The translations under genes and the position numbers were made by a program. A stretch of 64,000 bases of DNA from an uncultured Psychroserpens sp. (GTDB taxonomy: Bacteria; Bacteroidota; Bacteroidia; Flavobacteriales; Flavobacteriaceae), in NCBI GenBank assembly GCA_947488655.1, contig CANKZZ010000003.1, positions 558,001-622,000 of the forward strand. Direction: 5' to 3'. The stretch's first letter is position 1, and every line of letters starts with the position of its first letter. The notes under the pieces are model-generated. The model was not told the DNA's origin, made no database searches, and saw only the letters and a program-made list of their open reading frames with translations. Shown here one piece after another: positions 5,374-61,400 of this stretch.

Positions 5374-6735
5374 TTATTCTTTATCTAATCGATCTTGTTC
5401 TAGTGATTCTGCAAGGCGTCTTTCAATGATGGGCTCTATTAAGGTCTTAACAGGATTTGTCTTTATGAAAGGATAAAGTTCTAAGTTATCTTTCATTTTG
5501 TCTTGCATATTTGGATGTTTATTTGTGCCTAGTAGCGTGATGTCACCAGCCATAAATTGTTCATGCTCCTTTGCTATATTTTCTTTTATTTTTTTCTGAA
5601 TCGTGCCAGCTTTAAGCTGTGATAAAAATCCGCCATTTTGCTCTATATCTTTAAATAATTCTAAAGCTTTATCAGATAATTGTGAGGTTAACGACTCTAT
5701 ATAATATGCACCATCAGCTGGGTTATCTACTTTGTCAAAATAGCTTTCATTTTTTAATACCAGCAATTGATTTCGAGCTATGCGTTCTCCAAACTCATTG
5801 TCTTTATGATAAATAGCGTCGTAAGCTAAATTGGTAATTCTATTGGCACCTCCCAAAATAGCACTCATACATTCGGTTGTAGTACGAAGCATATTGGTGT
5901 TATAATCGTAAATTGTTTTATTACGCTTGGTAGGTGTAACATTTATTTGGCAATTAGGGTTGAAACCATACTCATGAGATAAGGTTGCAAACAAAATTCT
6001 AAATGCTCTTAATTTTGCTATTTCAAAAAAATAATTTGTACCTACCGATGCATTTATTATAATCTTAAAATCTTTTTTAAGGGGTGATTTAACTATAGCA
6101 TCTAGATGATTATAATATTCGTTTATATGAGCCAATGTGTATGCTAGCTCTTGTACCATGGTTGCTCCAGCATTTTGATATAAACTGGAATTAATACTTA
6201 ATGTATTGGTTTGACCAATTATAGCTTCTAATTGTAAGTGATCTTCTTTAAGATTTTTAAACCAATTTCCTGTTTTTGCAAGATTGCCAATAATATCAGT
6301 TTGAATAGCTACATTTTTATGTTTTGGGATCGTATTAACGTAATCTGAAGATAAAAAAAGTAATATAAAAGAGATAGGAGTAGAGTTAGGCTCTATATTT
6401 TGTAACAAATCGTCAATATTTATAGTTTCCGAAGAAATTATAAATTCTATACTCTCTGCACCTTTGGCTATGGCGTCTATGGCTTTTTCGTTAGATTTTT
6501 TAGTTTTTGCCACAAATATAGATTGGCAAATTTTAAATTGGGTTACTTTTGAATTTACAGCAATGTGATCTTTTTCAAACTCATCGGCATGATAAAAAGG
6601 TTTTACATTAATACCTTCATTGGTGTGCCAAATTAAGGTTTCGTTATAATCTGCACCTTTTAAGTCGACATGTATTTTTTGCTTCCATTGTTTAGAAGAT
6701 ACGTTATCAAAATCATTAAATAGTGTTTTACTCAT
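5374..6735 (-). CDS. mutA: Methylmalonyl-CoA mutase, small subunit
   Basis: A 453-aa protein with the fold of the mutase barrel (for example YQNAGATMVQELAYTLAHIN, which parallels the large-subunit helix [15 protein letters not shown]). It ends shortly after the barrel and lacks the C-terminal B12-binding domain; no DxHxxG motif is present. This matches the shortened small subunit of the flavobacterial heterodimer, which supports the catalytic large subunit but does not bind cobalamin. It overlaps the upstream divIC-like gene by 8 bases. A copy of the repeated 9-mer TTTCCGAAG lies at 6426-6434, read here as SSET. Confidence 0.93.
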   Translation of the reverse strand: MSKTLFNDFDNVSSKQWKQKIHVDLKGADYNETLIWHTNEGINVKPFYHADEFEKDHIAVNSKVTQFKICQSIFVAKTKKSNEKAIDAIAKGAESIEFIISSETINIDDLLQNIEPNSTPISFILLFLSSDYVNTIPKHKNVAIQTDIIGNLAKTGNWFKNLKEDHLQLEAIIGQTNTLSINSSLYQNAGATMVQELAYTLAHINEYYNHLDAIVKSPLKKDFKIIINASVGTNYFFEIAKLRAFRILFATLSHEYGFNPNCQINVTPTKRNKTIYDYNTNMLRTTTECMSAILGGANRITNLAYDAIYHKDNEFGERIARNQLLVLKNESYFDKVDNPADGAYYIESLTSQLSDKALELFKDIEQNGGFLSQLKAGTIQKKIKENIAKEHEQFMAGDITLLGTNKHPNMQDKMKDNLELYPFIKTNPVKTLIEPIIERRLAESLEQDRLDKE

Positions 6736-7030
6736 CCTTTTGTTCTAGTTTTAGGCTGTCTTCATATTCAATAATGTAAATGTCTTCATTTTCTTTCTTC
6801 ATATAGTATTTCTCGCGCGCCATTTTTTCTATACCTTCATCTGTACTAAGCTCTTTTATTGCCTTATTATCTTTTTCAATCTCATTTCTATAATATGTTT
6901 TTTCATTCTCTAAATCTGTAATATCTTCATTTAGATCTTGATGAATTAATAATGAGTTTGAATCAAAAAATAGCATCCATATTGCGAAAACTACAAATAC
7001 AATTACAAATATGTTTCTAAATTTTTTGAT
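6728..7030 (-). CDS. DivIC/FtsB-type septum formation initiator, start codon unclear
   Basis: A short bitopic protein: an N-terminal membrane segment (FRNIFVIVFVVFAIW), then a charged coiled coil (about DLNEDITDLENEKTYYRNE) and a conserved end ELSTDEGIEKMAREKYYMKK. The family stabilises the FtsQ/FtsL-type division complex. The only ATG, at 6976, starts after the membrane helix and would give an 82-aa protein without an anchor. The frame is open upstream to a TAA inside the udk end, but contains no ATG, GTG or TTG; I place the start tentatively at the ATC at 7030, just after the udk stop. The gene overlaps mutA by 8 bases. Confidence 0.75.
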   Translation of the reverse strand: MKKFRNIFVIVFVVFAIWMLFFDSNSLLIHQDLNEDITDLENEKTYYRNEIEKDNKAIKELSTDEGIEKMAREKYYMKKENEDIYIIEYEDSLKLEQKDE

Positions 7031-7032
7031 GG

Positions 7033-7641: not shown

Positions 7642-7690
7642 ATATAAAGACTAAAATTTAATGAACAAATTTAGCAATAATGATGTAAAA

Positions 7691-8146
7691 TCAAGGTTGA
7701 ATTTTCGAAACTTCCTCCACTGTGATTAATTTATCATTAGAATTGCCCCAACTATTTGTAATATAGTTCATTATATCTGCAATTTCATCGTCTTCTAATC
7801 CTAAAGGCGCCATAGACCCATTGTAGGTAACACCATTAACAATAATTTCTCCAGATTGACCATATTTTATAGCCTTAATGCTCTCTTGACGTTTATTCAT
7901 TAAATAATCTGATTTAGCTAAAGGAGGAAATGTTTTAGCTACTCCTTTTCCGTTTGGTAAATGACAAGAGACGCAAAAATCGGTATACAAAGATTTACCA
8001 CGAAGCATACTCTCCTTTAATTTTGGGTTTTGGTTTGTAACTTTTTCTTCGGAAATTATAACTTTTGAAATTTCTTTCTTTTTTTCAGAAGAATTACAAG
8101 ATACTATCAGCAGTGTTATTAATGTTGTATAAAATATTCTCATCAT
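7691..8146 (-). CDS. Cytochrome c lipoprotein
   Basis: A 151-aa class I c-type cytochrome on a lipid anchor: signal MMRIFYTTLITLLIVSC (Cys17), a charged linker, the haem-binding motif CVSCH (58-62) and a probable axial Met in GSMAPL (112). It should accept electrons in the periplasm. Its ATG overlaps the end of the sugar dehydrogenase gene by 4 bases, so it is the likely electron acceptor of that enzyme. The linker contains a 9-mer copy at 8047-8055 (read as ISEE). Confidence 0.92.
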   Translation of the reverse strand: MMRIFYTTLITLLIVSCNSSEKKKEISKVIISEEKVTNQNPKLKESMLRGKSLYTDFCVSCHLPNGKGVAKTFPPLAKSDYLMNKRQESIKAIKYGQSGEIIVNGVTYNGSMAPLGLEDDEIADIMNYITNSWGNSNDKLITVEEVSKIQP

Positions 8147-10632: not shown

Positions 10633-11814
10633 TTAACATATCTTAGTACAGACAATAACTATTTTGGCATTTAAAAGGTTTGTTGTAAAAAAGATGTAGA
10701 TATTACCACCATCTTTAATACGATGCTTTTTACGAATATTATTTACTGTATCAGGAAAATTTCTCACCGTAATATTGGCTTGTGATATATTAAGTTCTTT
10801 TAAGTTTTTTTTATTGTAATCTATAATGTTTTCAATTTTAAAAGATCTTCCAGGAAATGTTAATATGTCGTTATTTGTATATAAGTGAGAATGCTTATGG
10901 AGTTTAGCTACTTTATAATATTCTGAAATACTACCAAAAGCACCAGCTTTAAGAATTGCTGCATTTGGCTCGTACAAATAAGTTAATGGTTTACTATAGT
11001 TTACTTTGCAAGTAGCTTCATCTTTTAATTTAAAATCAAAAGATTCAATTTTAGTATCAATAATATTAGCGGTTTTGATGGTGATTTCACCTTCAAAACC
11101 GTTTTCAAGTATCCATAGAAGTTCTTTTACTTCATTCTTAACCGCGATGATATGAACTTCTTTTACATGTTTTAATTCAGTAATACCAATTGTTAAGTCT
11201 AATAATGGCGATGTTTTTACAGCAATATTATTTGCTTTTTTAAATAATATTTCTAGATGGAGAGGAACGTTAGGTAAGCAATCTTTAAGAAAAAACACTT
11301 TTCCTTTGCTCTCATGTCTTCGAGAAGGATCTACATAAATATAGTCGTAAACTTTTTTATTAGACTGTAAATAATCTATTCCATCTACATTTTTTGTTTT
11401 TACATTTTCTATATTTAATTGTGGATAGTTATATGCAACTATTTGAGATAATTTCTCATTTAATTCACAATGCGTTACATCTTCAAAATAATTAGCAAAG
11501 TAAAAGCAATCCACTCCAAAACCTCCAGTAATGTCAATGATAGATTTTCCTTTAAATAATTGAGCTTTATAATTTGCTGTAATTTCAGATGAAGTTTGCT
11601 CAATATTTAACTTATTTGGATAGTATATCTTTTCCGAAGAAAACCAAGTTGGAAGTTTCTTTTTAGATTTATTTTTAGCTTCAATTTGCTCTATAATCTC
11701 TTTGGTTGTTACGTTATTAAAGCTAGTTCCTTTTAAAATTAATTTAGAAATATCCAGATTGAGATTTTTTGAGATAAAATCCTGAATTTCGGTATTTAAA
11801 ATTTCAGTGTTCAA
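10633..11814 (-). CDS. Class I SAM-dependent methyltransferase with THUMP-like domain
   Basis: A 393-aa cytosolic protein. SAM motif I is IDITGGFGVDCFYFA (about 94-108), followed by the acidic motif HCELNE and the motif YIYVDPSRRH, which replaces the usual NPPY and is characteristic of a Bacteroidota THUMP-like methyltransferase family. The C-terminal part (about 290-393) has RSFKIENI and ITVRNFPDTVNNIRKK, the THUMP-like end; an RNA substrate is likely but not shown. The start is a TTG at 11812-11814 directly after the stop of the permease gene, with no ATG nearby. A 9-mer copy lies at 11631-11639 (read FSSEK). Confidence 0.85.
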   Translation of the reverse strand: MNTEILNTEIQDFISKNLNLDISKLILKGTSFNNVTTKEIIEQIEAKNKSKKKLPTWFSSEKIYYPNKLNIEQTSSEITANYKAQLFKGKSIIDITGGFGVDCFYFANYFEDVTHCELNEKLSQIVAYNYPQLNIENVKTKNVDGIDYLQSNKKVYDYIYVDPSRRHESKGKVFFLKDCLPNVPLHLEILFKKANNIAVKTSPLLDLTIGITELKHVKEVHIIAVKNEVKELLWILENGFEGEITIKTANIIDTKIESFDFKLKDEATCKVNYSKPLTYLYEPNAAILKAGAFGSISEYYKVAKLHKHSHLYTNNDILTFPGRSFKIENIIDYNKKNLKELNISQANITVRNFPDTVNNIRKKHRIKDGGNIYIFFTTNLLNAKIVIVCTKIC

Positions 11815-16143: not shown

Positions 16144-16863
16144 ATGAAACATATCCTTTTAACTTTATTTATGATCCCTTTGTTTTTTTCTTCGGAAACA
16201 ACTCAAACGTATCCACCTGTGACTGTTTTAGAATTATTTACATCACAAGGTTGTTCTAGTTGTCCACCTGCAGATAAATTACTAACCCAAGTTCAAAATA
16301 ATAAAGATGTAATTGCACTATCTTATCATGTAGATTACTGGAATTATATAGGTTGGAAAGACCCTTTTAGTAAAGAAAAATTTAGTAATAAGCAACGTAA
16401 GTATGGACAAAAATTTAATAGTAGCACTATTTATACGCCTCAAGTTGTCATAAATGGGAAAGAACATTTTGTAGGTTCTAATGTTGATATTATGAATTCT
16501 AAACTTAAACATTACAGTAAAATTGCAGCAAAAAACACTATAGTAGTATCTAATATTGATAGTGCAAATAATAAAATATCTTTCGATTATAGTATAGAAG
16601 GAGACATTAAAAATAAGTCTCTAAAAGTTATTTTGGTAATTGAAGAGCGCATCACAAATATCTCTAAGGGAGAAAATAGAAATCGTACCTTAAAAAACTC
16701 AAACATTGTAGTTCTAGAAGATACACTTATGCTTAATAGTAAATCTGGAAAACAAACAATATCAATTACTGATCTTGTAAAAAAAACCGATAAATTAAAA
16801 CTAATAACATTAATTCAAACCTCTAATTTAGATATAGTTGGAGCTAATCAAATAAAGTTATAG
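16144..16863 (+). CDS. DUF1223 thioredoxin-like exported protein
   Basis: A 239-aa protein with a signal peptide (MKHILLTLFMIPLFF) and the DUF1223 signature VLELFTSQGCSSCPPADKLL, where Cys37 and Cys40 form a thioredoxin-type CxxC. Later DUF1223 elements include YHVDYWNYIGWKDPFS and TIYTPQVVINGKE. The family is a periplasmic thioredoxin-fold protein of unknown substrate. The end overlaps the convergent rsmE gene by 6 bases. A 9-mer copy at 16190-16198 falls at the signal peptide end (SSET). Confidence 0.9.
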   Translation: MKHILLTLFMIPLFFSSETTQTYPPVTVLELFTSQGCSSCPPADKLLTQVQNNKDVIALSYHVDYWNYIGWKDPFSKEKFSNKQRKYGQKFNSSTIYTPQVVINGKEHFVGSNVDIMNSKLKHYSKIAAKNTIVVSNIDSANNKISFDYSIEGDIKNKSLKVILVIEERITNISKGENRNRTLKNSNIVVLEDTLMLNSKSGKQTISITDLVKKTDKLKLITLIQTSNLDIVGANQIKL

Positions 16864-18336: not shown

Positions 18337-18717
18337 TTATTTAACTGCTATCATGCTAATTTCTACATTTACAAATTTAGGTAAATTAGCAACTTCTACA
18401 GTTTCTCTAGCAGGAGCAGTATCTGCATCAAAATAGTTACTATAAACAGCATTGATATGACTAAAGTTATTCATATCGCTAATAAATATTGAAGATTTTA
18501 TTACATTATCAAAAGTCATATCTGCTGCTTCTAATACAGCTTTCAAATTTTGCATGACTTGTTCCGTTTCCGAAGAAATAGAATCTAAAACTAGTTCTCC
18601 AGAGTTTACATTAATCGCAATTTGTCCTGATGTATATAACGTGTTTCCTGTTAAGACAGCTTGATTATATGGTCCAATTGGAGCAGGAGCATTGGGTGTG
18701 TTAATTATAGTTTTCAT
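18337..18717 (-). CDS. ridA: RidA family imine deaminase
   Basis: A 126-aa YjgF/YER057c/UK114 protein that hydrolyses reactive enamine/imine intermediates formed by PLP enzymes. Signature parts: NAPAPIGPYNQAVLTGNTLYTSGQI, MQNLKAVLEAADMTFDNVIK and APARETVEVANLPK, whose Arg is the substrate-binding residue. It is 10 bases downstream of lptD and likely co-transcribed. The middle contains a 9-mer copy at 18567-18575 (SSET). Confidence 0.95.
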   Translation of the reverse strand: MKTIINTPNAPAPIGPYNQAVLTGNTLYTSGQIAINVNSGELVLDSISSETEQVMQNLKAVLEAADMTFDNVIKSSIFISDMNNFSHINAVYSNYFDADTAPARETVEVANLPKFVNVEISMIAVK

Positions 18718-22786: not shown

Positions 22787-23740
22787 TTGAAAATTTCAAG
22801 AGAAGTAAAAGCTGCAATACTCGTACTTTCGGGTATTTTGTTAATGATATTTTTAATCAACTATCTCAATGGTAAGAACCTTTTAAGTTCAAAAGACACT
22901 TATTATACAGAGTTTGAATATAATGCATTATCAAAAGCATCACCAGTTACTGTGAAAGGTAACAATGTGGGTAAAATTGTAGATATTGTTTACGATTTCA
23001 ATACAGGAAAAACGAGAATTTCATTTACTGTAGATGAGCAACTAAACTTCACTAAGCAATCAAAAGTTAGACTTTATAAAACAGGTTTAATGGGTGGCAA
23101 TGCTTTAGCAATTGTAGTAAGTAAAGATGGTGAGAAAGCTAAACCAGGAGATTTTATCGCATCTGAGGTAGAAGAAGATTTAGTTACTAATCTTACAAAT
23201 AGCTTCTCCGATATAAGCGGTAATTTAGATGCTACACTATCATCTGCAGATTCATTACTAATTAATCTTAATGGTTTAGTACTCGATGATTCTGAAAACG
23301 GAATTAAAAATGCTATTGCAGAGTTAAATGCTACAATGAAATCGTTTCAATCTGTTTCTTATTCTGTAAATAATCTAATTAAAGATAATGATGATAAACT
23401 TAGTGCTGTTCTTAGTAACTTCGACACCATCACAAGAGACTTAGCAGTAATAACAGGAGATTTAAAAGATGTTAAGCTATCTAAAACTGTAGCTAATCTA
23501 GATAATACATTAGCAACTGTAAATAATTTAATGACTAGCATAGAAAATGGAGAAGGTTCTATAGGAAAGCTTTTAAAAGATGAAGGCCTATATCAAAATC
23601 TTGAAGGCGCAGCATTGCAAATGGAGCAATTGTTAGAAGACATGAAATTAAATCCTAAGCGATATGTACATTTTTCTATCTTCGGAAAAAAACCAAAACG
23701 TTACGACGCAGATGGAAACGAAATAAAGGATAAAGACTAA
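22787..23740 (+). CDS. MCE/MlaD family lipid-transport protein
   Basis: A 317-aa protein with an N-terminal membrane anchor (AAILVLSGILLMIFLINYL, about 9-27) and one MCE domain (about 38-115; YNALSKASPVTVKGNNVGKI, TGLMGGNALAIVV), then a long helical region suited to a hexameric tunnel that carries phospholipid across the periplasm. The start is a TTG at 22787; the next Met is inside the membrane helix, so TTG is the sensible choice. The ABC partners (MlaE/MlaF) are not in this window. A 9-mer copy is near the C-terminus at 23680-23688 (FGKK). Confidence 0.9.
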   Translation: MKISREVKAAILVLSGILLMIFLINYLNGKNLLSSKDTYYTEFEYNALSKASPVTVKGNNVGKIVDIVYDFNTGKTRISFTVDEQLNFTKQSKVRLYKTGLMGGNALAIVVSKDGEKAKPGDFIASEVEEDLVTNLTNSFSDISGNLDATLSSADSLLINLNGLVLDDSENGIKNAIAELNATMKSFQSVSYSVNNLIKDNDDKLSAVLSNFDTITRDLAVITGDLKDVKLSKTVANLDNTLATVNNLMTSIENGEGSIGKLLKDEGLYQNLEGAALQMEQLLEDMKLNPKRYVHFSIFGKKPKRYDADGNEIKDKD

Positions 23741-25085: not shown

Positions 25086-25427
25086 ATGAGATATTTTCTT
25101 CGGAAATATCAACTCTTAATACTCATAGTCTTTCTATTAAATACTATGTCATTAAGTGCGCAATCCTATAGAAAAGATTCATTACAAATTAAATCATATA
25201 CACTCGTTCAATACCGTCAAAACGAAGTAAAAGAAGTAAAATTAATCAAAGTGCTATGTGATTATTGTTCAGATTTGCAAAAAGAAGTTATTGGTATAGA
25301 AGCCATGAGACGAGCAAAATCTGAAAGTTATGATCCAAAAAACAGAATAAAAGAAGGCGATAAAAAATTAGCAATATATATTAGAATAGCTAAAAAAGAT
25401 TTTGTGGCAATTAAAGAAGACGAATAA
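25086..25427 (+). CDS. Small exported protein between the Hdr-like genes
   Basis: A 113-aa protein. I choose the ATG at 25086, two bases after the upstream stop, because it opens a signal peptide (MRYFLRKYQLLILIVFLLNT, cut near SLSAQ). The mature part is basic with one CDYC motif (near residue 58) and no known family. It sits inside the iron-sulfur operon, so it may be a periplasmic accessory. A 9-mer copy at 25098-25106 lies in codons 5-7 (LRK). Confidence 0.75.
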   Translation: MRYFLRKYQLLILIVFLLNTMSLSAQSYRKDSLQIKSYTLVQYRQNEVKEVKLIKVLCDYCSDLQKEVIGIEAMRRAKSESYDPKNRIKEGDKKLAIYIRIAKKDFVAIKEDE

Positions 25428-40117: not shown

Positions 40118-41644
40118 ATGGCCATAATAGGAAGTATTATTAAAGGAATTATCGATTTAAGAGATACGTTTTCTTCGGAAACGTCGCCTGTAGAAAATCA
40201 ACATAAAATATTAAAAATGTTGCTTGAAAAAGCAAAGGACACACAGTTTGGAAAACACTATAAATTTGAAAGTATTTTAGATTCTCAAAATGTTGAAAAA
40301 TCGTTTAGCGAAACAGTGCCATATTTTGATTATAATAAAATAAATGATGAGTGGTGGCATAAACTTCATGAAGATGAAAGCGATGTTACCTGGCCAGGCA
40401 ACCCATCATATTTTGCTCTAAGCTCTGGTACAACTGGTAAAACAAGTAAAAGAATTCCTGTAACAGATGATATGATTGATGCAATTAGACAATCTGGTAT
40501 TAAACAGGTATTTGCTCTATCTAATTTTAACTTACCTGCAGATTTTTTTGAGAAAGGAATTATGATGCTAGGGAGTTCTACAGATTTAGCTGAAAAAGAT
40601 GATCATTTAGAAGGAGAAATAAGTGGTATCTCAGCGAGTAATATTCCAACATGGTTTAAAGGTTTTTACAAACCAGGAGAAGATATTTCTAAAATTGATG
40701 ATTGGGATGAGCGTGTGCAAAAAATTGCTGAGCAAGCTAAAGATTGGGATATTGGAGCTTTAAGCGGTATTCCTTCTTGGATTGAATTGATGCTGCAAGA
40801 AGTCATAGAATATCATAACTTAAATCATATTCATGAAATTTGGCCAAACCTTCAAGTATACACTTCAGGAGGTGTAGCTTTTGGACCTTATGAGAAGAGT
40901 TTTAATAAATTAATGGGTAAACCTGTAACGGTTATTGATACCTATTTAGCGAGTGAAGGTTACATAGCCACTCAAGTGCGTCCAGATACTGATGCAATGC
41001 AATTAAATACAGATAACGGTATTTATTTTGAGTTTGTACCGTTTAAACCAGAATATATTAATGAAGATGGATCGTTAACAAATGATGCACCAGCCATTAC
41101 ATTGGCAGATGTTGAGCTCAATCAGGATTATGTGTTAATCATTAGTACCGTTAGTGGTGCTTGGCGCTACTTAATTGGTGATACTATAGAATTTACAGAC
41201 GTAGAACGTGCCGAAATTAAAATTACAGGACGAACTAAATTTTTTCTGAATACAGTAGGTTCTCAATTATCGGTTAATAAAATGGATGCAGCACTTAGAG
41301 ATTTAGAAAAAGAATTTAAAACTACAATTCCTGAGTATACCATTTGTGCTAAACGAGGAGATGATGGTGAGTTTTATCATTTTTGGTATTTAGGTACAGA
41401 ATTAGAAAACACCGATGAAATTGCAATAGCAAATGCCTTAGACAAAAGCTTAAAAGAGGCAAATAAAAATTACAAGGTAGCTAGAACTAAAGCTCTTAAA
41501 GGTGTTGAAGTTACTTTAATTCCACCAGGAAAATTTTATGACTGGAATGCCAATAATAAGAAAAAAGGCGGACAAGTAAAGATGGAACGCGTTATGGGCG
41601 AAGATAAATTTGCAGACTGGGAGACATTTGTAACTAAAAATTAA
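40118..41644 (+). CDS. GH3 auxin-responsive-promoter family acyl-adenylating protein
   Basis: A 508-aa protein of the plant-GH3-like ANL superfamily. The ATP loop is FALSSGTTGKTSKRIPV (about 105-121); WPNLQVYTSGGVAFGPY, TYLASEGYIATQ and YLIGDTIEFTDVE are conserved, as is the C-terminal VKMERVMG. Bacterial members probably join an acid to an amino acid or amine, but substrates are unknown. It overlaps the convergent protein gene at 41641 by 4 bases. A 9-mer copy is at 40173-40181 (SSET). Confidence 0.88.
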   Translation: MAIIGSIIKGIIDLRDTFSSETSPVENQHKILKMLLEKAKDTQFGKHYKFESILDSQNVEKSFSETVPYFDYNKINDEWWHKLHEDESDVTWPGNPSYFALSSGTTGKTSKRIPVTDDMIDAIRQSGIKQVFALSNFNLPADFFEKGIMMLGSSTDLAEKDDHLEGEISGISASNIPTWFKGFYKPGEDISKIDDWDERVQKIAEQAKDWDIGALSGIPSWIELMLQEVIEYHNLNHIHEIWPNLQVYTSGGVAFGPYEKSFNKLMGKPVTVIDTYLASEGYIATQVRPDTDAMQLNTDNGIYFEFVPFKPEYINEDGSLTNDAPAITLADVELNQDYVLIISTVSGAWRYLIGDTIEFTDVERAEIKITGRTKFFLNTVGSQLSVNKMDAALRDLEKEFKTTIPEYTICAKRGDDGEFYHFWYLGTELENTDEIAIANALDKSLKEANKNYKVARTKALKGVEVTLIPPGKFYDWNANNKKKGGQVKMERVMGEDKFADWETFVTKN

Positions 41645-42249
41645 TCGTTAGCCATTTCTAAATCTCTAGTTTTAACCAACTCCATAATTTCCTCTGGAGA
41701 CAAGTAGTATTTCTTAATTCTATCTTTATACGAGGTGGTTATATTAGCATGATTAAGAATAAAATCTTTCGTTTTAAGTATATAATCTTCCATACCATGA
41801 GCTACTGCAAAACCATCTGCAGCACGTTCTGCTTCAATAATATGATTGTCTGAAAGGAGATATTTTATACCAAACCATATTAAATCTGGCTTGCTTCTAT
41901 CTTGATAATCCATTATATGACCCAATTCATGACCAATCCAGCCTGTAAAAATGTCAAAAGGAATATCTCTAGTTCTAAATGTGGTGTCAGATATTTTAAA
42001 AGTCTCACTTATTAAAATCACATATCTTCGATTTTTTTTACTTCGGAAAAAACTTCCAAAAGTAGGTCGTGCTTGCATCGTAGATTTTTTTATATTTTTT
42101 TTAAATCTAAACTCAATATTAATAGTGTCTAATTGCGGATAATAAGAAAGGGCAGTCGTTACTTCTCGTTCTATAGAATCTGGTATAATATGTTGTGAAC
42201 TCATAAAAAGGCTTGTTGATAATATTAAAAATTGTATTAATAATTTCAT
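41641..42249 (-). CDS. Exported putative zinc metalloprotease
   Basis: A 202-aa protein with a signal peptide (MKLLIQFLILSTSLFMSS). It carries HELGH at 107-111 (in GWIGHELGHIMDY) and a possible third ligand in EAERAADGFA (Glu139-Asp145), as in M48-like peptidases, so zinc binding is likely; activity and target are unknown. A 9-mer copy is at 42041-42049 (FRS). Confidence 0.7.
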   Translation of the reverse strand: MKLLIQFLILSTSLFMSSQHIIPDSIEREVTTALSYYPQLDTINIEFRFKKNIKKSTMQARPTFGSFFRSKKNRRYVILISETFKISDTTFRTRDIPFDIFTGWIGHELGHIMDYQDRSKPDLIWFGIKYLLSDNHIIEAERAADGFAVAHGMEDYILKTKDFILNHANITTSYKDRIKKYYLSPEEIMELVKTRDLEMAND

Positions 42250-44444: not shown

Positions 44445-46156
44445 TTTAGTTTATTTACAAAGGATTGTGCATAATCTTCAATTCGGTCACCAAAACATTC
44501 TAAAATTGCATCAACACCAATAACACTTCCTTTAGCTAAACGACCTAAAACTGCTACAGGTAATTGTTTGTTTTTATTTGAAGATTTAACATAACCGTTT
44601 TTAAAGGTTTCTATGCCTAATTTTGTATGTATAGGCTCAATTAAATCATCTTTAAGTAAATTAACGATAATAGATGAGTTGACATCTAACAACTTTGGAG
44701 CATCTAGTACAGAATTAATCATAACTGTAGCAGTGATAGATTGGTTGGTGTCATTTTTTAGTTCCCAACCTTTATCTTTCATAAGTATATCAGGATCATT
44801 TACATAATCTAGAGACAACACCTTTGCATCTACCAAAGCAAGAATTTGTTGCATACTTTCAATTGGAGGTCCGTAAGAGTAACGTTTTGTACTTTCATCT
44901 AGGGCAATGACATCTTCAATTAATTCGTCATCTAGTTTAGAATGTGATAATGTTTTATATAAGGTTGGCTGGCAATGTCTCCAAACTTGACCAATACAAA
45001 AATCTAAACTAATAGATTGTTCTCCCAAAGCCATTTCAATGTATGAACTTATTAATTTATAAGAGTCAATTGTAGTGTCTTGAATAAGCACATGATCATA
45101 ATCTTGATTTTTTAACCAAATTAATACTACTGTTTCTATATGCTTAGCATCTAATTTATGCGATATAGCTTTTGAGCTTAAATCTAAATAAATGCGAGCT
45201 ACAATTTTAGCTATGGGCTCAATTAAAAAATCTATAGAATTTGCATTCTCTTGTATTTTAGCGTGTGTTTCAATAGTATATTTTAAATGAGCTATTTCTT
45301 CATCTGTAGGCTTGTACCATTCATCTATTTCTGGATTTAGTGGTTTTGGCACCATTGGTAATCCGTCGAGAGAAAATGGAACAAGTTTTAAGTTTTGCTT
45401 TTTACTTTTAAAATATATGGTTTCAAAGGTTGATGGATTGGTAGTTTTAAAATTTCCGAAGTTATTAATAACCAAAGCTCTCATGACGTCAATCATTGCC
45501 AAACCAAATCCTCTTAAGCCAATTGTAACATCGGTTTTATTTTTAAGTTCATCAAATTGAGACACAGGATATGCATCATTAAACATTTGCAAATTATCTC
45601 TCGTTTTGGCGTGTGATGTCCAAGACACTATTTGTTTAGAAGGCTCTGTTGGTTGATGACCAATTGTAATTAAAGCATCATCGCAACTGTAAGTGTTTTC
45701 ATTTGCATGTATAATAAACTTATCATTTTCATATTTAATAATATCTACTTTAGATGGTATTAACTCAAAATGTGGGTTAGTAGTCAATGCATTTTTTAGA
45801 GACATAAAACGTTCATGGAGATATGTACCTACTTTATTTCTAGGAGGAAAAGTATCTGGCTGAGTAGGTTTTTGAGTATAATTAGCCCATTCTTTATACG
45901 AAGGAAAGGACGGGATTTCATGATTAAAATATGTAATTCTTGGTCTTTCGTTAATATCACCAAGTGCTCGCTCTGTGATGTTAATCCAATTAGAATCTTT
46001 TTGTTCGAGATTCCAAACTGGTCCAGTACCAGGATATTTTGATGGTTCAAAAAGTATTATTTGTAAAGCTTTTTTAGCTGTACATAGGTTTTCTAATACA
46101 TTTTCTAAGGCAAATAAACCTCTTGGACCTAAACCTATAATTGCTAATGTTTTCAA
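44441..46156 (-). CDS. FAD/NAD(P)-binding family oxidoreductase
   Basis: A 571-aa soluble protein of the PF13454 type. The N-terminal Rossmann motif is AIIGLGPRGLFALENVLENL (dinucleotide GxGxxG), followed by FEPSKYPGTGPVWNLEQ, DALITIGHQP and VTIGLRGFGLAMIDVMRALV. The family is related to FAD-dependent monooxygenases and FAD/NAD reductases of unclear substrate. It is monocistronic between the DNA-repair pair and DUF1853. A 9-mer copy is at 45453-45461 (FGN). Confidence 0.85.
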   Translation of the reverse strand: MKTLAIIGLGPRGLFALENVLENLCTAKKALQIILFEPSKYPGTGPVWNLEQKDSNWINITERALGDINERPRITYFNHEIPSFPSYKEWANYTQKPTQPDTFPPRNKVGTYLHERFMSLKNALTTNPHFELIPSKVDIIKYENDKFIIHANENTYSCDDALITIGHQPTEPSKQIVSWTSHAKTRDNLQMFNDAYPVSQFDELKNKTDVTIGLRGFGLAMIDVMRALVINNFGNFKTTNPSTFETIYFKSKKQNLKLVPFSLDGLPMVPKPLNPEIDEWYKPTDEEIAHLKYTIETHAKIQENANSIDFLIEPIAKIVARIYLDLSSKAISHKLDAKHIETVVLIWLKNQDYDHVLIQDTTIDSYKLISSYIEMALGEQSISLDFCIGQVWRHCQPTLYKTLSHSKLDDELIEDVIALDESTKRYSYGPPIESMQQILALVDAKVLSLDYVNDPDILMKDKGWELKNDTNQSITATVMINSVLDAPKLLDVNSSIIVNLLKDDLIEPIHTKLGIETFKNGYVKSSNKNKQLPVAVLGRLAKGSVIGVDAILECFGDRIEDYAQSFVNKLN

Positions 46157-46241: not shown

Positions 46242-47054
46242 TTACCACCAAACTAAAAATGCCTTGCTGAGTTCTCCTGTTTGATTTTTTAACCAAAATA
46301 GAGGTGATTGCTTGTTATCTAAAAATAATTTTGATTCGCTTCGGAAATTTGAAAACTCCAACCATTCAACATTTTCATGAGGTTTTAGAAACCAATCCAA
46401 CTTTTTTGGAATATAAAACTTATAATTTTTAAAAATTTCTATTTGAGATGCATGAATATAAAAACCACAAACACATGCCTTATTAATAAGCTCAAATTTT
46501 ATAGATTTTTGATATGGTACAAATAGTTGAGCCTTAAATAGCACACGTTGTTTAAAATTATGATTTTCTAGTTTTAAGGTATTTAATGTGTTTTGACAAT
46601 CATGAGAATAGAGTAGTGGTAATTGTTTGTTTGTTAGCTTATTGAGTTTATCTTTTAGACTATCTTTTCGGTTGGGACCAATCCAACTCTCAATTTCTAA
46701 ATTATCTAAAGTATCATCATACACATAAAATTTATATACAATTTCTAAATGAATTGGTGTTTTATCTGCTAATAACAAAGCATCTAACTCACCTAAAGTT
46801 CGTTTGTTTTTTTGAATTTGAATATTCTCTGCAAGTATTGTAGTTGTTGTACTCGTATCTAATTGGTTAAAAACAAACTGTTCTGCCAATTGTCCTAATC
46901 GAAGTTGTTTGTCTAATTTCCGAAGAAAAACAGTATTATAATCGTTAAGTGACTTTAATTGTTTGAGGTTATTAATGTCGGCATGTTTCCAGAGTAAAGG
47001 AGTTTTACAAAAGGCTTCATATAAAGCTTGTAGATGTTGCGAACTTATATTCAT
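46242..47054 (-). CDS. DUF1853 family protein
   Basis: A 270-aa soluble protein with the DUF1853 features LGQLAEQFVFNQLDT, KRTLGELDALLL and IHLEIVYKFYVYD, which hint at a restriction-endonuclease-like fold (E...D...ExK pattern in GELDALL and HLEIVYK). Whether it cuts DNA is not known. Two 9-mer copies lie inside, at 46339-46347 (FRS) and 46917-46925 (LRK). Confidence 0.85.
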   Translation of the reverse strand: MNISSQHLQALYEAFCKTPLLWKHADINNLKQLKSLNDYNTVFLRKLDKQLRLGQLAEQFVFNQLDTSTTTTILAENIQIQKNKRTLGELDALLLADKTPIHLEIVYKFYVYDDTLDNLEIESWIGPNRKDSLKDKLNKLTNKQLPLLYSHDCQNTLNTLKLENHNFKQRVLFKAQLFVPYQKSIKFELINKACVCGFYIHASQIEIFKNYKFYIPKKLDWFLKPHENVEWLEFSNFRSESKLFLDNKQSPLFWLKNQTGELSKAFLVWW

Positions 47055-51359: not shown

Positions 51360-51911
51360 ATGAAAAATAAAGTTATTGTTATATTATTCCTATTTGGTTT
51401 ATGTTTTAATTGTAGCTCTTCTAAGACAGCAGCAACACCATCTCAAATAGCTGCATTAGATCAATTAGTAAAAAATCAATCATTTGTTATAGAATCAAAT
51501 TGGGCTTTGCCACAATCTACACGAAGTTTAATGGCATTACAAAACGCTGTTTTTTTTGCGCCTGGAGATAATGCAAGTAGTATAAGTTTAATAGGTAACC
51601 CAAATGAACTTAAAATTGATAAAGACAAAGTATCTTCTAAACTTCCGTTTTTTGGAGAAGTACAATCAACAACAGGATATAATGGGTCTGATAGTAGTAT
51701 TAGTTTTGATGGAGAAATAAAAGATTATCAAGTTATTAAAAACGAAAATAGTAGTTATACTATAAAATTTGATGCAAGAAGCAATTCAGAAAATTTTGAT
51801 GTCATCATCCATTTATATCCTAATTTAAGAAGTGAAATTATCTTAAAAGGAGCCAAGCGTTTTCCTATTAGCTATACAGGATTTGTTAGAGCAATTTCCG
51901 AAGAAAAATAG
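51360..51911 (+). CDS. DUF4251 domain lipoprotein
   Basis: A 183-aa protein. I choose the ATG at 51360, which opens a lipoprotein signal (MKNKVIVILFLFGLCFNC; Cys18); a GTG two codons earlier is less likely. The DUF4251 part covers most of the mature protein (SFVIESNWALPQSTRSLMAL, then LPFFGEVQSTTGYNGSDSSI and IIHLYPNLRSEIILKGAKR). Function unknown. The last codons hold a reverse 9-mer copy at 51895-51903 (ISEEK then stop). Confidence 0.88.
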   Translation: MKNKVIVILFLFGLCFNCSSSKTAATPSQIAALDQLVKNQSFVIESNWALPQSTRSLMALQNAVFFAPGDNASSISLIGNPNELKIDKDKVSSKLPFFGEVQSTTGYNGSDSSISFDGEIKDYQVIKNENSSYTIKFDARSNSENFDVIIHLYPNLRSEIILKGAKRFPISYTGFVRAISEEK

Positions 51912-53539: not shown

Positions 53540-54406
53540 ATGAAACTACCATATCTCTATATTAAAATTATACTTGTTGCATTTGCATTTTTATGCATGA
53601 CCTCATGTGAGGATAAAGATTTAAATGAAACATCTAGCAGAACGAAAGTTGCATTGAGAGAAGCAGGAAATCAATTATTACTTCGGAAATTGGATTCTTC
53701 ATCATTAATATTACCTATTAAAGAAATTACATCTAATACCTACAAAATATCGTTTGATAAACCTATTAGCTTTGAGCCAAATGATATAGTTACTGTAATT
53801 GATAGTAGTTTAAATTTGGCCAATTTATCTAAAAATTATCGGGTAGAAGTAGTGCAGTGTGCAGATGGAGAAGTTGCATACAGTTACCAAATTGATGTAG
53901 AGGAGGAGCAAACCATTATTCCTTGTGCAGGTCGAAATTTACCAGAGGCTTGTTATACAATCCAGATTAAATTCTTAGATATTGTGCCTTCGAGTACATT
54001 CAGAAAAAAGCATATACCTTTTTTATTATTATTTGGCATCTTCTTATTTATAGGTTTTAAATATTGGTTTAGGAGAAAATTAGAACCAGTTTCCGAAGAA
54101 AAAAATAGTAATTATTCTTCAATTGGGAGTTTTCAATTTTATCCAGAGCAGCATAAACTTGTTAAATCTGCAACAGAAATTAGTCTCTCTAAAAAGGAGT
54201 GCGAACTTCTCGAAATTTTTGTAGCAAATCCCAACCAAGTCATTAAACGAGATGAACTCACTAAAAAAGTGTGGGAAGATAATGGTGTTTTCGTAGGCAG
54301 AAGTCTAGATACATATATTTCTAAACTACGTAAAATCCTTAAAGACGATAACGCTGTAAGAATTACCAATGTGCATGGTGTAGGATACAAATTGGAGGTA
54401 GACTAA
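53540..54406 (+). CDS. Membrane-tethered winged-helix transcriptional regulator
   Basis: A 288-aa protein starting at the ATG at 53540 (a frame from 53519 adds seven residues). Order of parts: signal-like N-terminus with a lipobox-like end (AFAFLCMTSC, Cys23), a periplasmic domain (about 24-155, with a Cys pair QCADG/PCAGR), one membrane helix (PFLLLFGIFLFIGFKYWF, about 162-180), then a cytosolic OmpR/PhoB-type DNA-binding domain (LSKKECELLEIFVANPNQVI, KRDELTKKVW, SLDTYISKLRKIL). This is an N-out, C-in layout, the reverse of ToxR/CadC. It could sense an envelope signal. Two 9-mer copies lie inside. Confidence 0.85.
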   Translation: MKLPYLYIKIILVAFAFLCMTSCEDKDLNETSSRTKVALREAGNQLLLRKLDSSSLILPIKEITSNTYKISFDKPISFEPNDIVTVIDSSLNLANLSKNYRVEVVQCADGEVAYSYQIDVEEEQTIIPCAGRNLPEACYTIQIKFLDIVPSSTFRKKHIPFLLLFGIFLFIGFKYWFRRKLEPVSEEKNSNYSSIGSFQFYPEQHKLVKSATEISLSKKECELLEIFVANPNQVIKRDELTKKVWEDNGVFVGRSLDTYISKLRKILKDDNAVRITNVHGVGYKLEVD

Positions 54407-55451: not shown

Positions 55452-58400
55452 TTACCTGTATAGTGTAAAATGTCCTACATAATCTTTTTCTAATAATGGA
55501 CTATTTGGTTTTACAACATACCAATAATCACCAGTAGGAAGTTCTTGCCCATTGTATCTACCATCCCAATATTGCCCAACTTTATAGGTAGCAACTTTAC
55601 GTCCATATCTATCAAAAATATCAAAGGTTAAATTAGGGTAATCTTCTATACAACCTGGTGCCCAAGTATCTGCTGTCCCATCTCCATTTGGTGTAAACCA
55701 ATTAGGAATGCAAGGTCCTAAGAACTCTAAATCTATAGTTGCTTCTGCTTGACAGCCACTACTGTCTGTTACAATTACAGTGTATGTACCTTCTTCTGTA
55801 ACTATATAAACATTAGTGTCTCCATAATCTTCTCCATTAAGTGTGTATTGGTAGTCTCCAGTACCACCAGTTGCGATAGCAATAATTTCTCCAGCTTCGT
55901 CTCCTTCCTGCAAGATTAGAGATAAAGGCTCAAATTCTCCAATATCAAATAATTGCGTAGTTTTTATACAGCCATTTGTATGTCTAACATTTATATAATG
56001 ATCTGTACCAGGAGTAACATTATTAAATGTATTACTTGCTTGATAATCTCCACCATTGAGCGAATAATCAAATTCTGAAAGATCTAAATCATCTTCACTC
56101 TCTAAAGTCACAGTTACAGTATTAACTGTGCTATTGTTTTCACATGCATATAGAACTTCAAGTATAGGTTCAAAACTTACCGAGTCTGGGAAGGTTATAT
56201 TCCATTCGGTTTCACATCCCTGAGCATCTCTAACATAAACCATATGATCACCTCCAGCTAAATTTGTAAAATCAAATTCAGTTTGTGTAGCAGATCCTGT
56301 TGTATAAGGACCATCATAATTATCTAAACTTACACTATAAGGCAATGTACCTCCAGATACCTCTATGCTAAACTCTGCATTTTCTTCTCCTTCACAAGTT
56401 TCTCCAAATAAAGAGTCTGGTACAATACTAAGTATCACTTGCTCTGGATTTGTGATTGTAAATTCAAAAATCTCATAACATCCCAATTCATCTTGTACAA
56501 TAACTGTATAAGTATTTGGTGCAAGATTCTCAAAAACGTTGGTTTCAAAAAATTGATCTAACTGTGGTGAAATAGCATACTTAATTACACCTGTTCCACC
56601 TGTAGCATTTATGGTTAATACTCCATCTTCATTGCCACTACATGTTACATCGTTTACAGTAAAATCAACTGTTAAAGGAGCTGTTGGTTCTGTTATAGTA
56701 ATAGGAGCAGAGGCAGTTTCACAATCACCACTTACAACATTTACTACATACGTACCTGCAACAAGATTAGTAAACACACCTGCAGTATCTTGAGTAGCGG
56801 TAATAGGATTACCCAAATTATCTTCTAAAGTATAAATATAGTTTCCTAAACCTCCTTGAGCATCTGCTACAATGGTACCTGTGTTATCACCTGCACAATT
56901 AATCGTAGGATTCATGCTCATTAAATTAATAGTCAAATCTAATAATGGATCTATTGTTATGTCATTTGATACATTGGCAACACAACCATTAGCATCTCTA
57001 ACATAATATTGATAAGTGCCAACAGGAACAGAAAATGTTGTAGAGTTGGTAAAAAATCCTAAAACCGTTGAGAAATTCTCGCTGTTACTATATTGATAAG
57101 TACCTGTACCACCAGAAGCACTTAATGTAATCGTAGATTCTACATCACAAGTTTGTGTTGTGGTTACGACTAAATTTGCTGTAATTGGTGTTGGTTCGGT
57201 TATTACAATTTCCGAAGATAAAAGAGAACATTCATTCCCATCACTTACTAAAATCGTATAAGTACCAACTCCTAAATCTGTAAATACATTTGACGTTTGA
57301 GGTCCAGATGTTGATGTTGCAGAATTCAATGTATAAATATAATCTACACCTTGACCACCTGTTACATTTGTTACTGTGATTGTTGCATTTTGATCTCCAA
57401 AACAAGCCAATGTTGAAACATTTGAAGTAAAAGTAGCATCTATTGGAGAAGGTTCTATAAGTGTTATAACTTCGGAAGCTATACAGCCTTCGGCATCTAT
57501 AACATTAACAGTGTATGTGCCTGCAGCCAAGTTTGAGAATGATCCGTTAGGAGAATACCCAACTGTTGCATCACCTGTTAATTCATATTGATAATCTCCC
57601 CAACCACCTGATGCGATTGCAGTAATTGTACCTTGGTTATTATCACAAGAAACATTAGATGTTTCTGAAACATTTAAAATTAAAGCTTCAGAAGGAGATG
57701 AAATAACAACATTTGCACTTGCATCACAAAACGGACTATCAGTTTCGGTGATTACAACCGTAAAACTTCCAGCGGTCATACCTGTAACTGTTAATGGATT
57801 GGTTGAGGTATTGGCATTTACAACACCAAAAACTGATGTTGACGTATTATCAAAAACTTCATAACTATAGGCTCCAGAATATCCGTTCACATTGATTTCA
57901 AAAGCACCAGTATTGTCTCCAAAACAAGTGACAGAAGTTGAGTTTGTTGTAAATGTTGGAGGTGTTGCAGCTTGTAAAGACACCGTCACATCCTTTGTAC
58001 ATGATGTCACTGTATCTGTAATAGTAACAGTGTAAACGCCTGAAGGTACCCCAGAAAATATTCCGCTAGTTTCTGTTATTGAGGCTGGATTTGGACTAAT
58101 ACTATATGTAAACGTTCCAGAACCACCAGACCCAGTAATTGTTATTTCTCCATCATCATCGTTACACGTTGCAGATGCCGAAATTGTAGGTGTAATTTCT
58201 AAAGGTGCTAAAATATCAACAGTTACTGAGTTTCCGCAACCGTTAGCATCTTGAATTTCTATAGTATGCGTACCAGAAAATAGATTAGAAATTGTAAATG
58301 GTGCAGATTGTGTTTGAAACGCTCCACCATCAATACTAAAGCTATAAGGTGCAATACCTGGTGAATCTAAAGTAACATCAATTTCATAATTACCATTTTC

Positions 58401-61400
58401 AATATCACATGTTGTATTAATTACTGCGGAAATATTAGGTTGATCATCCATAGGTAAAATAACCACAGGACTTGATACGATACAACCATAAGCATCAATA
58501 ACATGAACATAATAATTTCCTGCATCTCTATTAAATGTACTAGCTGATTCCCAATTGGCGTCAGTATCTAAAGGAGCAGTAGCTGTTGTTGTAATTTGAT
58601 ATTGATAAGGTGCAGTTCCATTTTGAGCAATAGCACTAATCACTCCTGAGTTGGCGTTACAATTTGCATTTTGATCTACAGATGTTTGTAATTCTAGTAA
58701 AAAAGCAGATTCTGTAATATTAAATGCAGTGGTAACCACTCCACATCCAGCATTTACACCTGTAGTTTCTGTAATGGCTACGAAATAATTTCCAAAAGGT
58801 AGTGGTCCTAAATTAGAGACAGTTAAATTTCCATTGGCTGTAACTGTTCCACTTCCAGAAATCCCTGTAGATTGTAAAGACAATGCATCAAATACTTCGT
58901 AACTAACATCAACATTAGATCCATACACACTGTTAATTGTAAATGAGACGTTACCATCATCACTTCCTGTACAGGTTATATTATTAGAACTTACAGCACT
59001 TAAAGTAAGTGACGAATTTGTTGGTATTGGTGCAGTTGCAGGTTCATAATAACTACATAGTGTAGACTCGTCATATACGATAAAAGTATAGGTGACACCA
59101 GGTATCAAGCCAGTAAATGTTGCAGATTGACTTCCAGTTGCATCTTCTGGTATCCAAGAACCAACAGGATCTGGATAGACAGTTGTGGGTCCTTCATAAA
59201 TTGCAAAATGAAAAGGACCAGAACTACCAAGAGAAGATCCAATACTTACAACAGCTTCTCCACCTGAAGAACAATCTACTGTAGTCGTAATATTGATATC
59301 TAAATCAGTAGGAGGAGAGGCAACTAAAACGTCTTGAGTTAAAATAGAACATCCGTTAGCGTCAACTACATTAATTTCATAGAGTCCAAAATCTACCACA
59401 TCAAAACTTACAGAGGTAGAACCAGTTGCATTAAGTTCCGTTTCTGCGTAACCATTACTTCCGGTTACAAAATAATTATAAGGCGCTGTACCTCCTGTAA
59501 CTGAGTTTATTATTACAGATCCTTGAGATATACCACCTGCAGTACAAGTTATGTCTACCGTATCATAATCTATAACAATTGGATCTGGTTGGTTAATAAT
59601 TATGGTTTCCGAAGTAAAACATAAATTAGCATCTGTAATAGTTACAGTATATGTTCCCGCTGTTAAACCAGAGGTTTGTGTGCCATAATCTGTACTAGTT
59701 GTATCGTTATTTACATTAATAATAAATGGAGGAGTTCCTACTGTATCATCAATTGTGATATCTAAAGCTCCGTTTTGATCTCCATTACATAAAATTGGCT
59801 GTGATTCTACAACCAAACTCAATGCTGGAGGTGTGATAGGATTTACAGTTATAGTACTTGATTCTGCAATACATCCATTTGCATCTGTAATTTGAAATTG
59901 ATAATCACCTGCCGAAGAGGTGTTATAGGTAAATGGTGTACCTGTAGTTCCTAAATTTGTATATGTACTGCCATTAAATGAAACTGCATAAGTAAATGGT
60001 GCAGTTCCAGTAATATCTCCTGTAAACATGGCATCTGGAGTTGCTGTACAATCTAACCCAGAGGTTAATACAACATTGACTGTTGGTGCTGGAATTGGGT
60101 CTATTGTAATTGACTCTGTATACTCACAATCGTTTTCATCCCTAACTTGAAATGTATATGTTCCAGGTTCTAAACCAGCAAAACTAGTTGTTGTTTGATA
60201 AGCTGTTGCACTTGCAGCAGGAGCAATAATTTGATATTCTAAAAGACCTGTTCCACCAACTGTATTTGTAATTGTAACTGTGGTTGTATTTGAAGGACAA
60301 GTTACTGGTGCAATATCAAATTCTAAATCTGTAGGTGGATTTAAAGCTTCAACAATAATCTCATTTGAAATTACCGTACAATCATTAGCATCTTTAATAG
60401 AAATAGTATAAGCTCCTGCGGTTAAACCCGAAAATTCATTACTGTTTTGGTAATTAACACCATCAATACTATACGTATAAGGTGCATCTCCACCTGTAAC
60501 CGTTGTTACTGTAATTGTTCCATTAGATGTACATGTAAAAGGAGCAGTTAATTCTGCTGTACCAGAAATTGCATTTGCTTCTAATATAGTTACTGTTTGA
60601 GCAACAGTTTCGCAATCTGAAGCTCCTATTGAGTAAGCTACAATAACATTATAATCTCCCGCAATAAGTCCAGTAAAGACTGGTGAGTTTACAAACGTTG
60701 TACCTCCATCTATACTGTAAGACAATGAATTTCCGTTTGTAGCAGTTACATTTATCGAAATAGAACCCGTATCTCCAGAACCACCACAAGCAATATCTGT
60801 AGTGTCTATTGTAAATTCTGGTTGATCAATAGCTTCAACTGTTATTGTTGTTTCAGCACTACAATTGTTAGAATCAACAACAAGTATATCATAAACTCCT
60901 GCAGTAGAAACCACTATTTCTGGAACCGTTTGAAAATCTGATGATCCATTTACAAAATAAAAGTAAGGAGGTGTACCACCAACAGGATATGCAGTAATTT
61001 CACCTTCTTCACAAGTAAGTGGTATTGTAATTGCTGCTGTTACTGTTAATAATGGTGGTTCAATAATTTCAATTTCTTCGGAATAAATACAACCATTTTC
61101 AGTCTCTACAGTAGCAGTATAAGTTCCTGGATTTAGATTCTCAAAAATATATGTGTTTTCTAAAATTGGACCAACACTATTTACCAATGTTCCACTTTCA
61201 CTTAATGTAAATGTGTATTGAGGGTCTACATCATTTGCAGCTAATTGAATACTTCCTTTATCTCCATAACACAAGGGTTGTAAGATGGTAGAAGACACTG
61301 TAAAATCTCTATCTCTAATTAATACGTCATGCACACTAAATACACATGGGTTAGTAGGTACACCAATTTGTCTAACATATACGGTATAAGTTCCTGCAGT

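What the first reader, a model, noticed from the sequence alone, without database searches (positions are those of the whole stretch)
6426..59614. Strongly over-represented 9-mer CTTCGGAAA across the window
I count 20 exact copies, 10 per strand. With independent bases at about one-third G+C the expected number for both strands is around 0.4 (0.165^4 x 0.335^5 x 64000 x 2). About 11 of 20 extend to TTTCTTCGGAAA on the motif strand. Copies are spread roughly every 3 kb, not in tight inverted pairs like terminators, and all lie inside genes. Dispersed, oriented short words of this kind are known as Chi sites, DNA uptake sequences, FtsK-orienting or nucleoid sites. I know of none described for Flavobacteriaceae with this word. 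This is my best candidate for a new system signal here.
Basis: partly seen in the sequence, partly recalled or inferred. Interest (0 to 1): 0.9.

Follow-up and report, generated by a model that had tools for sequence, protein, structure and literature searches.

The report
Probable DNA-uptake tag in flavobacteria
A short DNA word, CTTCGGAAA, is repeated hundreds of times all over this bacterium's genome and may be a self-recognition tag that helps the cell take up DNA of its own kind; that uptake role is inferred and still has to be tested.

Summary
Confirmed: 20 copies in the window (shuffle mean 0.26), 864 genome-wide against 51 for the reversed word, 95 against 3.9 in sampled coding DNA after synonymous codon shuffling. 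Copies are balanced relative to genes (49:46) and to GC skew (55:50 here, 139:143 in 12 relatives), denser outside ORFs, and preceded by a T-tract. Enrichment is patchy: 17 of 199 family genomes, 110 to 1347 copies in 23 species of the genus; 2 of 240 class genomes of other families pass the same cut-off, untested for composition. One related genus uses CTGCGGAT instead (777 against 32). Stretches around conjugative elements hold fewer copies; sites turn over quickly. Best reading (0.66): an uptake sequence for natural transformation; my searches found none in print for Bacteroidota. The genome carries the DUF5689 and outer-membrane protein pair essential for transformation in Riemerella; DUF5689 is predicted as tandem OB folds. 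FtsK-type polarity is excluded; Chi (AddAB) is disfavoured, not excluded. Uptake itself is untested.

The parts
6426..6434 (-). CTTCGGAAA copy (full TTTCTTCGGAAA)
8047..8055 (+). CTTCGGAAA copy (full TTTCTTCGGAAA)
11631..11639 (-). CTTCGGAAA copy (full TTTCTTCGGAAA)
16190..16198 (+). CTTCGGAAA copy (full TTTCTTCGGAAA)
18567..18575 (-). CTTCGGAAA copy (full TTTCTTCGGAAA)
23680..23688 (+). CTTCGGAAA copy, intact in same-genus genome G045
25098..25106 (+). CTTCGGAAA copy (full TTTCTTCGGAAA), intact in G045
30305..30313 (+). CTTCGGAAA copy
31572..31580 (-). CTTCGGAAA copy
37146..37154 (+). CTTCGGAAA copy (full TTTCTTCGGAAA), intact in G045
40173..40181 (+). CTTCGGAAA copy (full TTTCTTCGGAAA)
42041..42049 (+). 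CTTCGGAAA copy
45453..45461 (-). CTTCGGAAA copy
46339..46347 (+). CTTCGGAAA copy
46917..46925 (-). CTTCGGAAA copy (full TTTCTTCGGAAA), intact in G045
51895..51903 (-). CTTCGGAAA copy (full TTTCTTCGGAAA)
53681..53689 (+). CTTCGGAAA copy
54090..54098 (-). CTTCGGAAA copy (full TTTCTTCGGAAA)
57209..57217 (-). CTTCGGAAA copy
59606..59614 (-). CTTCGGAAA copy

Best explanation
T-tract + CTTCGGAA(A) is a DNA uptake sequence (DUS/USS type) of a naturally transformable flavobacterium. Shown: a genome-wide, strand-symmetric, codon-independent, lineage-specific word with a T-tract flank, with a one-base dialect in a related genus, absence in near relatives, and fewer copies in stretches around conjugative elements. 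Inferred: a surface receptor binds duplex DNA carrying the word and passes it to an outer-membrane channel; ComEC, DprA and RecA bring it in and recombine it. Because tagged DNA is taken up and recombined more often, copies accumulate by molecular drive wherever mutation or recombination allows. Candidate machinery (inferred by domain make-up and gene pairing): the lipoprotein-like DUF5689 protein (G000:C1:465061-466491) and the carboxypeptidase-regulatory-like outer-membrane protein beside it (466548-469421), counterparts of RA0C_RS04920 and RA0C_RS04915 of Riemerella, both essential for transformation there. Which protein reads the word is a guess; the DUF5689 protein is my first choice.
For: Excess: 864 against 51 genome-wide; 95 against 3.9 in sampled ORFs by synonymous codon shuffle. 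DNA-level: 49 copies on the coding strand, 46 opposite; 0.463 per kb outside ORFs against 0.229 inside. Consensus: T-rich -8 to -1, peak T 136 of 162 at -3, then CTTCGGAA, then A 118, G 23, T 20, C 1. T is also preferred at -2 or -3 in G118, G101, G063, G039, G114, G076, G078 and G045, weakly in G012, not in G007. Single-mismatch excess is confined to a few positions: 3 (A, G), 4 (G), 9 (G, T), weakly 2 (G) and 7. No polarity. Patchy spread: 17 of 199 family genomes with at least 150 copies and 3 times the reversed control; 110 to 1347 copies among 23 species of the genus. Dialect: G118 has 777 CTGCGGAT against 32; 3 of 4 species of its genus have 416 to 777. Five stretches around conjugative elements, 195.5 kb: 6 copies, 29.3 expected from genome means. 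Turnover: 4 of 19 aligned sites intact in a same-genus genome at 75% identity. Machinery: DUF5689 in 182 of 199 family genomes, beside the outer-membrane gene in own genome and in 20 of 20 others examined; ComEC in own genome. DUF5689 part modelled with mean pLDDT 89.5; the 24 Foldseek hits at E 0.001 or better are by their titles mostly RPA, HIN-200/IFI16, Teb1, BRCA2 and a repair complex. Literature: Riemerella screen (PMC8459023, abstract and passages) and self-DNA preference of R. columbina (PMC7965970, abstract, passages, section 14).
Against: No uptake experiment exists for this organism, and competence of its genus is not shown. DUF5689 is nearly universal in the family while the word is patchy, and receptor similarity does not separate enriched from other genomes (identity of the outer-membrane protein to own: G068 70%, G059 61% without the word; G198 49%, G100 46% with it). 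The coding-orientation bias and, in Pasteurellaceae, gene-end bias reported for known uptake sequences (PMC2346458, abstract and section 3) are not seen: 49:46, and 20 of 95 in the terminal tenths against 19 expected. Density (about 240 per Mb) does not discriminate: PMC1939737 gives 1008 Chi in about 4.64 Mb and 438 A. pleuropneumoniae uptake words in about 2.28 Mb. Two class genomes of other families also pass my cut-off (G368 194/51, G384 172/4), untested for composition. The drop near conjugative elements is partly composition: the reversed 8-mer falls too, 10 against 22; G007 (4 against background 6) and G054 (1 against 2) contribute little.
Confidence: 0.66

Rival explanations
1. Chi-like recombination hotspot: the AddAB helicase-nuclease reads the word as single strand, stops degrading and loads RecA; copies are kept by selection on repair.
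For: Dispersion and density are Chi-like (E. coli: 1008 in about 4.64 Mb, PMC1939737 passages); the summed one-mismatch excess is modest (163 against 92); an AddB/AddA-like pair of matches is present in 14 of 14 genomes examined; Chi words differ between lineages (recalled); fewer copies near conjugative elements would also fit.
Against: No strand polarity: 55:50 here, 139:143 in 12 other genomes, although strongly polar 8-mers exist in the same sample. AddB of the window's genome is 60% and 61% identical to two close relatives that lack the word and 42% to a distant genome that has it. T-tract flank.
Confidence: 0.18
2. Binding site of an abundant chromosome-organising or other DNA-binding protein, spread over the chromosome.
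For: Duplex-like consensus with a T-tract and position-graded mismatch tolerance.
Against: 12-fold variation in copy number within the genus and near-absence in neighbours; random spacing, CV 1.06; poor positional conservation.
Confidence: 0.07
3. FtsK-orienting (KOPS/SRS-type) or replication-polar word.
For: Dispersed non-palindromic word.
Against: No polarity relative to GC skew in samples of 13 genomes.
Confidence: 0.01
4. RNA-level element (UUCG tetraloop hairpin, terminator or mRNA stability element).
For: TTTCTTCGGAAA can be drawn as a 4-bp stem with a UUCG loop; variants at the second loop base are among those enriched.
Against: Both orientations equal in genes; no compensatory pairing at -3/+8: T-A 102, T-G 19, T-T 14, A-T 4, C-G 1; no excess of close pairs (7 gaps under 200 bp, 5.6 expected).
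Confidence: 0.02
5. Mutational or repair by-product, or HIP1-like word tied to methylation.
For: TTCNGAA inside the word is palindromic, and CTTCGGAAG is enriched (21 against 1.2).
Against: Strong asymmetry of flanks and of position 9; a different centre (CTGCGGAT) is enriched in one genus.
Confidence: 0.04

Closest known systems
Uptake signal sequence (USS) of Pasteurellaceae, e.g. Haemophilus
   Same: Short non-palindromic core, hundreds of copies, both strands, rarer in coding DNA than expected (PMC2346458 section 3); a neighbouring A/T tract (recalled).
   Different: Unrelated word, other phylum; no coding-orientation or gene-end bias found here; smaller one-mismatch excess (against PMC1939737 passages); uptake not tested.
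DNA uptake sequence (DUS) and its dialects in Neisseriaceae
   Same: Lineage dialects (PMC3630211, abstract and outline) and atypical distribution in conjugative elements (PMC7371117, abstract and outline), as here.
   Different: Unrelated word; close inverted pairs not in excess; the receptor there is ComP (PMC3868556, start of abstract in a search listing), here unknown.
Riemerella natural transformation system (DUF5689 protein RA0C_RS04920, outer-membrane protein RA0C_RS04915, ComEC, DprA, ComF, RecA)
   Same: DUF5689 + carboxypeptidase-regulatory-like gene pair present in the window's genome; R. columbina prefers its own DNA (PMC7965970).
   Different: No uptake word has been defined there; the part of the authors' k-mer table that I saw lists A/T-rich words (PMC7965970 passages).
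Chi sites of RecBCD/AddAB
   Same: Density and dispersion; AddAB-like pair of matches present.
   Different: No strand polarity, T-tract flank.

Membership tests
DNA uptake sequence (DUS/USS) | Short word over-represented genome-wide beyond composition and codon use | tested here: met
   864 against 51 genome-wide; 95 against 3.9 in sampled ORFs
DNA uptake sequence (DUS/USS) | No general strand orientation bias along the chromosome | tested here: met
   (samples, not whole chromosomes)
DNA uptake sequence (DUS/USS) | DNA carrying the word is taken up or transforms preferentially | not testable with these tools
   needs uptake competition in a living strain
DNA uptake sequence (DUS/USS) | Host has a working transformation apparatus | tested here: inconclusive
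   ComEC and the DUF5689 + outer-membrane pair are present; DprA, ComF, type IV pilus genes and the helix-hairpin-helix protein were not searched; function not shown
DNA uptake sequence (DUS/USS) | A receptor that binds the word | not testable with these tools
   candidate only: tandem-OB DUF5689 model
Chi site (RecBCD/AddAB) | Recognised by the host's RecBCD or AddAB enzyme | not testable with these tools
   AddB/AddA-like matches in 14 of 14 genomes, RecC in 0 of 31
Chi site (RecBCD/AddAB) | Preferred on the leading strand (known for E. coli Chi; recalled, not general) | tested here: not met
   55:50 and 139:143
FtsK-orienting polar sequence (KOPS/SRS) | Strong strand polarity towards the terminus | tested here: not met
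HIP1-like palindrome | Palindromic word | tested here: not met
   CTTCGGAAA is not palindromic and its flanks are asymmetric
RNA hairpin / intrinsic terminator | One orientation relative to transcription, paired arms co-vary | tested here: not met
   49:46; no covariation at the outer pair tested

The most novel reading that the evidence does not exclude
Flavobacteria have their own self-DNA recognition system that does not use a type IV pilus: a surface lipoprotein with two DNA-binding OB folds (DUF5689) sits on an outer-membrane channel as a DNA-capturing lid, in the manner of SusC/SusD pairs, reads T-tract + CTTCGGAA (or a lineage dialect such as CTGCGGAT), and feeds tagged DNA through the channel to ComEC; dialect changes and losses set barriers to gene exchange between lineages.
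Probability: 0.33. Interest if true: 0.93.

Novelty: new variant of a known kind. Interest (0 to 1): 0.78.

Why it matters
From what I recall, uptake sequences are established only in Pasteurellaceae and Neisseriaceae, both read through type IV pilus machinery. A third, unrelated case in Bacteroidota would show that self-tagging of DNA can evolve with another import apparatus, would give a testable ligand for the unexplained Riemerella transformation proteins, and would predict gene-flow barriers among flavobacteria from their genome words alone.
Full report
Observation. CTTCGGAAA occurs 20 times in the window, 10 per strand, against a shuffle mean of 0.26, and is the top 9-mer by over-representation. 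The window lies at G000:C3:558001-622000 of a 3.6 Mb, 20-contig genome that holds 436 + 428 copies against 26 + 25 of the reversed word. I sampled 400 kb from five other contigs and used 464 kb with the window: 118 copies, 95 within ORFs of 80 aa or more. In these ORFs 100 synonymous codon shuffles give mean 3.9, sd 1.9, largest 10. Density outside ORFs is 0.463 per kb, inside 0.229 (ORFs found mechanically, so the boundary is rough).

What the signal looks like. 162 CTTCGGAA sites in the sample show T preference from -8 to -1, strongest at -3 (136 of 162), then at position 9 A 118, G 23, T 20, C 1. Among 27 single-mismatch variants in coding DNA, clear excess is limited to position 3 (CTACGGAAA 17 against 2.0; CTGCGGAAA 9 against 1.1), position 4 (CTTGGGAAA 21 against 8.2) and position 9 (G 21 against 1.2; T 19 against 1.3); CGTCGGAAA (3 against 0.5), CTTCGGCAA (7 against 2.5) and CTTCGGTAA (7 against 3.3) are slightly raised; the rest are near or below expectation. 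The sum is 163 against 92, a modest excess: the uptake word of A. pleuropneumoniae stands 10.0 above expectation at one mismatch and E. coli Chi 1.47 in a table of PMC1939737 (passages), with another way of computing expectation. The profile is that of a protein-read duplex site with a core and a T-tract. Pairing of -3 with +8 shows no compensation.

Orientation and place. Relative to genes: 49 same strand, 46 opposite. Relative to the G-rich strand: 55:50 here (23 in stretches of ambiguous skew set aside), 139:143 in 12 other genomes (8-mer or 7-mer cores, 100 ambiguous set aside). Spacing is random. No end-of-gene bias, a weak 5' tendency (mean relative position 0.44, KS p 0.051). This excludes FtsK-orienting words and RNA-level readings, and disfavours Chi.

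Distribution. In 199 genomes of the family (198 genera), 17 have at least 150 copies and at least three times the reversed control: G000, G045, G007, G012, G027, G039, G054, G058, G062, G063, G076, G078, G090, G100, G101, G114, G198 (my count from the table). Several more are weaker (G073, G074, G096, G031). Of 247 genomes drawn from the class, 7 belong to the family (the window's genome among them) and 240 to other families. None of the 240 exceeds 203 copies, and that one is 7.7 Mb with a control of 131, but two pass the same cut-off: G368 (194/51) and G384 (172/4). I suspect composition there and could not test it; so restriction to the family is likely, not shown. On a MutA tree (45 rows) 13 enriched or weakly enriched genera plus G118 form one supported clade; others sit near Salegentibacter, near Aquimarina and near Polaribacter, and the window's genus lies among neighbours without the word (G175, G125, G059, G068 by whole-genome counts; Psychroserpens mesophilus and Flaviramulus multivorans judged on 22 kb only). 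Within the window's genus (23 genomes) counts run from 110 to 1347; 15 of 23 reach three times the control, 21 of 23 two times. Common ancestry with repeated weakening, or repeated gain, cannot be told apart here.

Dialect. G118, inside the enriched clade but poor in CTTCGGAAA (38 against 94), has CTGCGGA 69 against 14 and CTGCGGAT 38 against 4.8 in coding DNA and 777 CTGCGGAT genome-wide against 32; the next genomes have about 200 (G094 202/27, G007 197/17, G077 191/26). Three of four species of its genus have 416 to 777, the fourth 28. Flanks again prefer T at -2 (59%). G101 carries CTTCGGAA and also CTTCAGAAA (10 against 1.1). Lineage dialects are what is reported for Neisseriaceae (PMC3630211, abstract and outline seen).

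Conjugative elements. TraM (PF12508) hits were found in 4 of 14 genomes asked, five places, none in the window's genome. In 195.5 kb around them there are 6 CTTCGGAAA, 29.3 expected from genome means (Poisson 2e-7). The 8-mer gives 19 against 83 in 200 kb of background from the same four genomes, the reversed 8-mer 10 against 22, so part of the drop is composition; element boundaries were not determined; G101 and G114 carry the effect, G007 and G054 contribute little. The comparable use of uptake sequences to spot conjugative elements in Neisseriaceae is PMC7371117 (abstract and outline).

Turnover. Against same-genus G045 (75% identity over 53.4 kb) 19 of 20 window sites align and 4 are intact (21%; any 9-mer 10%); of 9 sites in the 80 kb G045 stretch 4 are intact in the window. 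A dispersed tag, not fixed regulatory sites.

Chi rival. RecC is absent in 31 of 31 genomes; two PDDEXK_1 matches of AddB and AddA size (about 930 and 1060 aa) are present in 14 of 14, about 5 kb apart in 13 of them (PF12705 is a broad family, so the naming is inferred). AddB identity follows kinship: own against G175 59.5%, G059 60.6% (no word), G076 42.5% (same word), G118 37.4% (dialect). The outer-membrane protein does not: G175 53%, G125 52%, against G076 59%, G012 60%, G073 62%, G074 63%, G062 66%; but G068 70% and G059 61% lack the word and G063 56%, G198 49%, G100 46% have it, so this is suggestive at most.

Conclusion. The word is real, genome-wide and lineage-specific. An uptake sequence of a transformation system is the best-supported reading (0.66); Chi is the main rival (0.18). 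Steps shown: excess, symmetry, consensus, dialect, absence in neighbours, turnover, presence of the gene pair. Steps inferred: uptake bias, receptor, independence of pili (pilus genes were not searched), molecular drive.

Noticed in passing
window 55452-63668 (-) and 54413-55420 (-): A 2738-aa repetitive protein with a gliding-motility-type C-terminal end beside a 335-aa PorP/SprF-like protein (names from recall, no family search run; ORFs).
   Followed up: no
L232-L235, L167-L168, L212 (G068): TGGTGGCG (16 against 1.1) and TGGCGGA (27 against 4.3) are over-represented after codon shuffle in a close relative lacking CTTCGGAAA: another dialect or a Chi-like word.
   Followed up: partly
L138-L139 (G101): CTTCAGAAA is enriched beside CTTCGGAA (10 against 1.1; TTCAGAAA 24 against 3.9), suggesting a broader dialect.
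   Followed up: partly
G368 and G384 (class genomes of other families): CTTCGGAAA 194/51 and 172/4 against the reversed word: composition or a second, distant use of the word.
   Followed up: no
L082 (Pontibacter fetidus): The words AACTATAG (42 in 22 kb, 0.85 expected) and ACTATAGT (32) are very frequent, like cyanobacterial HIP1.
   Followed up: no
L159-L160 (G021) and L144-L145 (G027): CATTAGAC (9 against 0.6) and TTAGACAA (11 against 1.5) share the core TTAGAC; not among the top words of G021 after codon shuffle.
   Followed up: partly
L143 (G045:C1): 18.8 kb contig with 9 to 12 copies of words such as ACAACGTGTA and CCGAGTACAC: probably a local repeat gene.
   Followed up: no
L215, L220, L222, L223 (G076, G114, G073, G074): The DUF5689 protein is 703 to 728 aa with two DUF5689 matches in these genera with the word; double matches also occur in genomes without it (G003, G043, G128).
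   Followed up: no
L217, L218 (G021, G056): In these genomes without the word the C-terminal part of the DUF5689 protein is of another type, resembling a lamin-tail domain by eye.
   Followed up: no
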